Origin: Sinorhizobium sp. RAC02
Lineage (GTDB): Bacteria > Pseudomonadota > Alphaproteobacteria > Rhizobiales > Rhizobiaceae
Length of the DNA stretch: 64,000 nt
Direction of reading: 5' to 3'
NCBI RefSeq assembly: GCF_001713395.1
Contig: NZ_CP016450.1
Location: 2,170,001 to 2,234,000, forward strand
The translations under genes and the position numbers were made by a program. The notes beneath the pieces are model-generated. The model was not told where the DNA came from, ran no database searches, and was given only the letters and a program-made list of their open reading frames with translations. This document shows, in pieces, positions 3,452 through 4,244 of the stretch; the first letter of the stretch is position 1; each line of letters opens with the position of its first letter.

Positions 3452-3964
3452 CTATCCCTGCACGTCTCGGATGATGCGGTCCGCCGCGTCCTGAAGCGCC
3501 TTTGCATCTATGCCCATGACGCGCAACGTCCGCGCTGCAACGCCATGCGGCATGCCGGCCACGACCGACACGACGTGGGCGCCGAGCAGGGGATTGTGCT
3601 CCTTGCGCCCCTCCGCCAGACGCTGCATGACCGCCTGGCCCGATGGCGCCGCATCGAATACCCCATGCCGGGAGGGCAGCGGCTCGGGCTCCGCCGCATG
3701 CACCGACACCGCTGGATCGAGGCCGACCAGCCGGAGCGCCTCGCCATACTGACGCTCGATCGCCGGCCGGAAGCCGGCGGCATCGGCGCCGACCGCCTCG
3801 AACGCCCGCCGGGCGGTCCCATCCGGCAGGTCGAGTGCCGCGAGCATAAAATGCTCCGCTCCGGGCTCGCGCTGCTGGTCTTGTCTTGCGTGCTGTTCCG
3901 CCTGCTCGCACAAGGCCCTGATCGTGCTCATGCTTTCAAAGCGAGCCTTGATCCGATTGAACAT
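3452..3964 (-). CDS. stand-alone Clp N-domain protein
   Basis: A 170-residue protein carrying two Clp repeat (Clp_N) units without any AAA+ ATPase module. Unit 1 spans roughly residues 17-75 (QAEQHARQD, GAEHFMLAALDL, AFEAVGADAAGF); unit 2 spans 108-168 (AVMQRLAEGRKEHNPLLGAHVV, RTLRVMGIDAKAL). The G-A-E-H-x-(L)AAL and L..MGID patterns match the substrate/adaptor-binding N-domain of ClpA/ClpC. Without an ATPase it cannot unfold proteins; an adaptor, decoy or sensor role is inference. It follows the small HTH gene by 11 bases on the same strand, so they are almost certainly co-transcribed. Confidence 0.7.
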   Translation of the reverse strand: MFNRIKARFESMSTIRALCEQAEQHARQDQQREPGAEHFMLAALDLPDGTARRAFEAVGADAAGFRPAIERQYGEALRLVGLDPAVSVHAAEPEPLPSRHGVFDAAPSGQAVMQRLAEGRKEHNPLLGAHVVSVVAGMPHGVAARTLRVMGIDAKALQDAADRIIRDVQG

Positions 3965-3975
3965 GGGTTATCCTC

Positions 3976-4197
3976 CTATGGGGAATCATCACTCGCGACG
4001 ATGTCCGAGAGCCGTTTATGGGCAGCCTGCTTGGTGACGCCGAGCGCCTGCGCGATCCGCGCCCAGGACCAGCCCTGTCGCAAGGCCGACCGCACGGTAC
4101 GCCGCTCCAGTCCGTCCGCGAGGCGACGGAGCGCGATCACCGCCGCCAAGGCGGTCTCCGGGTCTTCGGGATCGGGCAGGCTGCTGATATCGACCAT
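3976..4197 (-). CDS. small helix-turn-helix protein
   Basis: A 73-residue protein whose C-terminal half is a helix-turn-helix: ALRQGWSWARIAQALGVTKQAAHKRLS, with the recognition helix VTKQAAHKRL. The N-terminal part (PEDPETALAAVIALRRLADGLERR) is a predicted helix that could dimerise. The ATG at 4197 lies one base from a palindrome (CGTCAA-N6-TTGACG), so the operator overlaps its ribosome-binding site (AAGG). This strongly suggests autoregulation. It leads a two-gene unit with the Clp-N protein. Comparable HTH plus Clp-N pairs are known to me in other bacteria, but their function is not established. Confidence 0.75.
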   Translation of the reverse strand: MVDISSLPDPEDPETALAAVIALRRLADGLERRTVRSALRQGWSWARIAQALGVTKQAAHKRLSDIVASDDSP

Positions 4198-4198
4198 T

Positions 4199-4244
4199 CG
4201 TCAACCTTAGTTGACGATGAGGCGTCCGTCAATGATGGTTGACG
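4199..4244 (-). promoter_or_regulatory. tandem operator CGTCAA-N6-TTGACG
   Basis: Two perfect palindromes of the same form, CGTCAA-N6-TTGACG, lie at 4199-4216 and 4227-4244, 28 bases apart start to start. The first extends to seven-base arms (CGTCAAC/GTTGACG). They sit directly upstream of the HTH gene on the minus strand; the proximal one covers its ribosome-binding site. The most economical reading is a pair of binding sites for the HTH protein itself. Binding has not been shown; the repeat is read directly from the sequence. Confidence 0.7.

What the first reader, a model, noticed from the sequence alone, without database searches (positions are those of the whole stretch)
3452..4244. Small HTH plus AAA-less Clp-N protein with its own tandem operator
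Seen directly: a 73-residue HTH gene and a 170-residue protein with two Clp_N units but no ATPase are 11 bases apart, and two perfect palindromes CGTCAA-N6-TTGACG (28 bases apart) lie at the HTH start, one overlapping its ribosome-binding site. Established: Clp N-domains bind adaptors and substrates. Inference: an autoregulated module that tunes ClpA/ClpC function or senses misfolded protein. This is the best candidate here for a poorly described system.
Basis: partly seen in the sequence, partly recalled or inferred. Interest (0 to 1): 0.75.

Follow-up and report, generated by a model that had tools for sequence, protein, structure and literature searches.

The report
Two-gene ClpC2-like autorepressor with operators
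A soil-type bacterium carries a two-gene, apparently self-controlled relative of a mycobacterial protein (ClpC2) that soaks up a protease-targeting antibiotic, and comparing it with relatives, including stand-alone versions in phages, points to the part of the protein that reads the DNA switch.

Summary
A 73-aa HTH gene and a 170-aa Clp_N protein without ATPase lie 11 bases apart behind two palindromes 28 bp apart; 100 shuffles give none. The system is not wholly undescribed: the palindrome is almost letter for letter the published operator of mycobacterial ClpC2 (CGTCAAC-n5-GTTGACG, 1-2 nt before the ORF, often tandem; PMC10030653), an autorepressor and antibiotic sponge. Here HTH and Clp_N are two genes and the spacer is n4. 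Of 398 Pseudomonadota genomes the tandem operator is in 3, the same 3 that hold the HTH gene. All 10 distinct intact proteobacterial pairs read have two sites 28 bp apart. The operator follows the HTH, not Clp_N: 0 of 10 loci with Clp_N but no HTH have it; 21 of 33 distinct phage loci with a stand-alone HTH have a palindrome of its type upstream (29 sites, 0.33 expected). The two ClpC2 crystals should both lack the predicted recognition helix, and their authors placed DNA binding on Clp_N. Best reading: a split ClpC2-type autorepressor/sensor in a host with ClpA and ClpB but no ClpC found. Inducer and Clp_N partner are inferred.

The parts
3976..4197 (-). HTH protein gene, 73 aa (ClpC2-N-terminal-type helix-turn-helix; predicted HTH helices 45-52 and 56-71, recognition helix about TKQAAHKRL)
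3452..3964 (-). AAA-less Clp_N protein gene, 170 aa, two Clp_N repeats, ClpC-NTD type
4199..4216 (.). Proximal operator CGTCAAC-n4-GTTGACG, 1 nt before the HTH start codon
4227..4244 (.). Distal operator, 28 bp upstream (one arm mismatch at the 7th base)
4227..4232 (-). Putative -35 (TTGACG) inside the distal operator
   Evidence: read; not reported by the scan
4204..4209 (-). Putative -10 (TAAGGT) inside the proximal operator, 17 nt from the -35, 6 nt before ATG (leaderless-type)
   Evidence: read; not reported by the scan
3971..3977 (-). Shine-Dalgarno-like AGGAGGA of the Clp_N gene, overlapping the HTH stop codon
   Evidence: read

Best explanation
This is a two-gene (split) counterpart of the actinobacterial ClpC2 autorepressor/sponge. 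SHOWN by sequence: the HTH gene, the Clp_N gene and a tandem operator that also holds promoter-like elements occur together in Proteobacteria of several families; the same half-site stands before fused ClpC2 and before stand-alone phage HTH genes; it is missing from the Clp_N genes without HTH that I read. INFERRED: a dimer of the HTH protein binds both palindromes, covers the -35 and -10 and represses the operon, so the pair is made at low level. The Clp_N protein binds exposed peptide segments or peptide-like ligands in its ClpC-type groove. A rise in such ligands relieves repression, most likely because Clp_N contacts the HTH protein in trans (in ClpC2 the link is in cis), and the extra Clp_N soaks the ligand up or holds clients for ClpA/ClpS or ClpB. 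The HTH, not the Clp_N domain, reads the operator, probably in ClpC2 as well.
For: Operator equal to the published ClpC2 operator in arms, place and tandem form. Two sites 28 bp apart in 10 of 10 distinct intact proteobacterial pairs; HTH identity to the window is 53-85% in the 5 of these 9 relatives measured. Tandem operator in 3 of 398 genomes, the same 3 with the gene, 0 for the reversed control. The split-HTH profile finds fused ClpC2 proteins at E 9e-10 to 9e-9 and 8ADA (Rv2667) at 0.0077. 0 of 10 loci with Clp_N but no HTH have the operator; 21 of 33 distinct phage HTH-only loci have a palindrome of its type. In Embleya the split HTH has A for K in the recognition helix and 6 of 8 half-sites read xATCAAC instead of xGTCAAC, while fused ClpC2 on the same replicons keeps K and CGTCAAC. 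R185, blamed for DNA binding in ClpC2, is kept in 0 of 10 split Clp_N proteins and R189 in 1 of 10. HTH fold predicted with mean pLDDT 85.8.
Against: No binding or expression data for this locus. The 8ADA match alone is weak. Taylor et al. report that changing R185/R189 in the ClpC2 Clp_N domain weakens DNA binding, which argues for some role of that domain. In 12 of 33 phage loci no such palindrome was seen. Nonomuraea has no site by the pattern used and the decayed Bradyrhizobium copy has none. The split Clp_N is not nearer to the ClpC2 Clp_N domain than to ClpC N-domains, so common descent of that half from ClpC2 is not shown. Of the cyclomarin-contact residues only F96 is kept, in 7 of 10 split proteins; E181 in 1 and F172 in 0 of 10. 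No evidence for HTH-Clp_N contact in trans, and the host has no ClpC to protect.
Confidence: 0.75

Rival explanations
1. The Clp_N protein itself (or a joint HTH/Clp_N surface) reads the operator, as published for ClpC2, and the HTH protein is mainly a dimerisation part.
For: Published weaker DNA binding of the R185A/R189A ClpC2 variant and 2.0-fold raised expression with the matching M. smegmatis variant (PMC10030653).
Against: Operator present before phage HTH genes without Clp_N and absent from 10 of 10 Clp_N loci without HTH; R185 kept in 0 of 10 split Clp_N proteins, R189 in 1 of 10; the authors' own dimerisation-deficient and CTD variants supported the need for the N-terminal dimer.
Confidence: 0.1
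2. The Clp_N protein is an adaptor or competitor of host ClpA (or ClpB), tuning substrate choice; the HTH merely sets its dose.
For: Clp N-domains bind adaptors and substrates (established knowledge); host has ClpA with ClpS and ClpB.
Against: Its profile is nearer to ClpC than ClpA N-domains (E 7.5e-15 to about 1e-11 for most isolated ClpC N-domains against 5e-6 for ClpA); patchy presence (4 of 21 in the genus) does not suggest a core regulator of ClpA.
Confidence: 0.25
3. A toxin-antitoxin-like pair: the HTH is an antitoxin like RelI, which its authors think emerged from ClpC2, and the second gene is its toxin.
For: HTH profile matches RelI (9sdc, E 2.2e-6); small two-gene operon, HTH first.
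Against: The partner is a Clp_N protein, not a RelE-type toxin; RelI's authors report no evidence of DNA binding and no inverted repeats upstream.
Confidence: 0.04
4. A decaying remnant of horizontal transfer with no present function.
For: Patchy distribution; a decayed copy exists in Bradyrhizobium sp. C9.
Against: Both ORFs intact; operator spacing kept exactly in 10 of 10 intact proteobacterial pairs; pair at the same place, beside dxs, in four genomes of the genus.
Confidence: 0.04

Closest known systems
ClpC2 (Rv2667 / M. smegmatis ClpC2), PMC10030653
   Same: Homologous N-terminal part, AAA-less Clp_N part, CGTCAAC..GTTGACG operators (often tandem) 1-2 nt before the start codon over -35/-10, leaderless-type layout
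   Different: Two genes instead of one chain; spacer n4 instead of n5; six-residue insertion near the N-terminus of Clp_N in 9 of 10 split proteins aligned; no ClpC found in the host; cyclomarin response unknown
RelI (Rv2664) of the RelS-RelI toxin-antitoxin system, PMC13284704
   Same: Homologous HTH region
   Different: Partner is a RelE-superfamily toxin; no operator found by its authors
PHROG 686 phage HTH proteins (e.g. Arthrobacter phage Decurro; Noely has the same kind of HTH)
   Same: HTH of the same family with a GTCAAC-n5-GTTGAC palindrome just before the start codon
   Different: No Clp_N gene beside them in the stretches read; other phage HTHs have GTCAAG..CTTGAC instead
ClpC/ClpA N-terminal domain
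   Same: Two-repeat Clp_N sequence and model
   Different: No AAA+ modules, so it cannot be an unfoldase

Membership tests
ClpC2 (actinobacterial autorepressor/sponge) | HTH-type N-domain and Clp_N domain in one polypeptide | tested here: not met
   Two ORFs, 11 bases apart; fused in 6 of 6 distinct actinobacterial ClpC2 loci
ClpC2 (actinobacterial autorepressor/sponge) | N-domain homologous to Rv2667 4-72 | tested here: met
   Profile finds fused ClpC2 at E 9e-10 to 9e-9; 8ADA at E 0.0077, weak alone
ClpC2 (actinobacterial autorepressor/sponge) | Clp_N domain without AAA+ modules | tested here: met
ClpC2 (actinobacterial autorepressor/sponge) | Operator CGTCAAC-n5-GTTGACG 1-2 nt before the ORF, often tandem | tested here: not met
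   Arms, place and tandem form met; spacer is n4, not n5
ClpC2 (actinobacterial autorepressor/sponge) | Cyclomarin-contact residues F96, F172, E181 kept | tested here: inconclusive
   Window: F96 kept, F172 column A (an F lies two columns before), E181 column Q; loose alignment in this stretch
ClpC2 (actinobacterial autorepressor/sponge) | Represses itself; ligand lifts repression | not testable with these tools
   needs bench work
Class I Clp unfoldase (ClpA/ClpB/ClpC) | Two AAA+ modules | tested here: not met
   170 aa, Clp_N only
RelS-RelI toxin-antitoxin | RelE-superfamily toxin beside the HTH | tested here: not met
   Partner is Clp_N
PHROG 686 HTH | Profile match of the HTH | tested here: met
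   E 1e-5 for the window HTH (residues 32-62), 1.5e-17 for Decurro
Known anti-phage defence protein | PADLOC profile match | tested here: not met
   No match for either protein at E 0.01

The most novel reading that the evidence does not exclude
ClpC2 is one branch of a broad family of small autorepressors whose HTH reads a palindrome (often tandem) close to the start codon; the sensor is a plug-in that can be fused (ClpC2), encoded by the next gene (this locus) or absent (phages). The published DNA-reading site of ClpC2, on its Clp_N domain, is then misplaced: the HTH recognition helix falls in the stretch that neither crystal contains. In ClpC-less Proteobacteria the split module works in trans, as an inducible decoy for peptides or unfolded segments aimed at ClpA or ClpB.
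Probability: 0.55. Interest if true: 0.75.

Novelty: new variant of a known kind. Interest (0 to 1): 0.6.

Why it matters
It extends a mycobacterial antibiotic-sponge system to Proteobacteria in a two-gene form, and the separation of the parts acts as a natural experiment: it says which part reads DNA. That gives a direct, cheap test of the ClpC2 induction mechanism, which bears on how bacteria cope with ClpC1-directed peptide antibiotics, and it raises the question of what ligand such a module senses in bacteria that have no ClpC.

Tried and rejected

Rows dropped before counts: L045 (same HTH protein and operators as L009), L028 (same protein and upstream region as L027), of 41 loci, those with too little upstream sequence or duplicate sequences, leaving 33. 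Two of the 33 (L231, the same contig as L035; L198, identical to Decurro's HTH) are members of the query alignment; without them the count is 19 of 31. The 10 loci are 10 chosen from the 30 rows listed (55 records matched); they include ClpC ATPase genes. In the alignment the L019 row holds the wrong frame and is left out of the counts of split Clp_N proteins; L046 and L047 were not in that alignment. One search shows open Clp_N frames in L019, L029 and L045-L047.

Full report
WHAT IS THERE. On the minus strand, a 73-aa HTH gene (3976-4197) is followed after 11 bases by a 170-aa gene (3452-3964). The second protein matches Pfam Clp_N at E=4.8e-13 with two stretches and nothing else; the HTH has only sub-threshold HTH matches. 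Upstream lies a DUF4424 gene, downstream the convergent dxs gene. Two exact CGTCAA-n6-TTGACG palindromes lie at 4199-4216 and 4227-4244; 100 shuffles of the window give none, and the 6.6-Mb genome has 3 sites against 0 for the reversed pattern. With 2 mismatches allowed the two sites are no more than chance, so the evidence is in the exactness and in the relatives. The proximal site ends 1 nt before the start codon. The layout TTGACG-17-TAAGGT-6-ATG puts the -35 in the distal and the -10 in the proximal palindrome; a plain sigma-70 scan did not report it.

THE PUBLISHED MATCH. Taylor et al. 2023 (PMC10030653; I saw the outline, parts 1 and 2 of 8, section 11 and found passages) describe for ClpC2 the operator CGTCAAC-n5-GTTGACG one to two nucleotides before the ORF, repeated upstream in many of the actinobacteria they looked at, overlapping putative -35 and -10, with probably leaderless transcripts. 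ClpC2 represses itself; cyclomarin A binding lifts repression and ClpC2 then sequesters the drug. The window has the same arms, place and tandem form, with n4.

RELATIVES. Clp_N was confirmed by profile. In the table of 13 intact pairs (G1199 left out as a copy of Shinella SUS2), 10 of 10 proteobacterial ones have two sites 28 bp apart with n4; both Embleya have two variant sites 29 bp apart; Nonomuraea has no site by the pattern used. A fourth locus, Bradyrhizobium sp. C9, is decayed and has none. Fused ClpC2 was read in 6 distinct actinobacterial loci from plasmid records: all have n5 sites, 5 of 6 with two by the pattern, Tsukamurella with one and a second imperfect one.

HOW RARE AND HOW SPECIFIC. 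The HTH is in 1 of 151 genomes of the family, 1 of 385 of the class, 2 of 321 of the class of G237 and 4 of 21 of the genus; these sets overlap and three of them include the own genome. Of 398 genomes across the phylum, 5 gave HTH hits, of which 2 weak ones are other proteins. The tandem pattern, searched without any protein, is in 3 of 398, the same three, with 0 in the reversed control. Within the genus the pair sits beside dxs in all four carriers. Of the 20 dxs loci compared, 4 hold the pair, 4 have DUF4424 next to dxs and 1 the MCP gene downstream of it with no pair, and 11 match none of the blocks tested: a local gain or loss. That the genus is Shinella is inferred from a same-genus locus (L045) whose HTH equals that of Shinella sp. 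SUS2.

WHICH PART READS THE DNA. The operator follows the HTH. Ten loci with Clp_N or ClpC but no HTH have no operator (0 of 10). Arthrobacter phages Decurro and Noely, and viral contig L035, carry stand-alone HTH genes with such palindromes 1-2 nt from the start codon. Among 41 viral loci found by protein search, 33 distinct ones could be tested: 21 have a perfect GTCAAx-n4/5-xTTGAC palindrome in the 300 nt before the HTH core, 29 sites where 0.33 are expected from the rest of the same loci; 12 have none. Two of the 21 are query members; without them it is 19 of 31. Some read GTCAAG..CTTGAC, and some lie further from the likely start codon. In Embleya, where the split HTH has A in place of K in the recognition helix, 6 of 8 half-sites are xATCAAC, while the fused paralogue on the same replicon keeps K and CGTCAAC; with two related genomes this is suggestive only.

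CONSEQUENCE FOR CLPC2. The profile of the split HTH matches 8ADA (Rv2667) residues 33-72, E=0.0077, the chain ending at the HTH turn. Counting along that chain gives the D46 and R57 named in the paper. In fused homologues the next residues are [TS]KQAAQ[KQ]R, the recognition helix. The two ClpC2 crystals cover 4-72 and 94-252, so this helix should be in neither; for Rv2667 itself I infer it from homologues. The authors placed DNA binding on R185/R189 of the Clp_N domain; in my alignment R185 is kept in 6 of 6 fused ClpC2 but also in 2 of 5 ClpC or Clp_N-only rows, and in 0 of 10 split Clp_N proteins. The RelI paper of 2026 (PMC13284704; passages only) already notes an HTH region in ClpC2, so the HTH as such is not new; that it reads the operator I did not find in print in the searches (an open-licence library; Hoi et al. 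2023 was not read, only as cited in passages of PMC10864484).

MECHANISM AND LIMITS. Autorepression by the HTH through the tandem operator is very likely (about 0.9). A ligand-sensing or sponge role of Clp_N is a moderate inference (about 0.5). Contact between the two proteins in trans is a guess from ClpC2 by analogy. The module works like ClpC2 but fails two of its defining features (single chain, n5 spacer), so I file it as a variant, not a member.

Noticed in passing
L035:2392-2517 (IMGVR_UViG_3300031902_000417): Five further operator-like palindromes every 27 bp inside an open reading frame of an actinophage-like contig that also has the stand-alone HTH; may be extra repressor sites or a coding repeat.
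   Followed up: partly
L014/L023 and L015/L025: Two Embleya species carry both a split pair and a fused ClpC2 on the same replicon, with different half-sites, as if the two regulators were insulated from each other.
   Followed up: partly
L012:2760-3510 (Bradyrhizobium sp. C9): A decayed copy: Clp_N frame broken, no operators.
   Followed up: partly
L204-L206, L210, L211, L234, L235, L238: Phage HTH genes with other tandem palindromes close to the start codon (GTCAAG..CTTGAC; in L238 TGCAAC- and GGCAAC..GTTGCA-like), suggesting a larger set of repressor specificities.
   Followed up: partly
own genome C1:369851-370084: A second ClpS gene besides the one next to clpA.
   Followed up: no
L072 (Mycobacterium avium plasmid p3-JPH1): A 13-kb mycobacterial plasmid carries an AAA-less Clp_N frame without HTH or operator; similar small plasmids are listed but were not read.
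   Followed up: no
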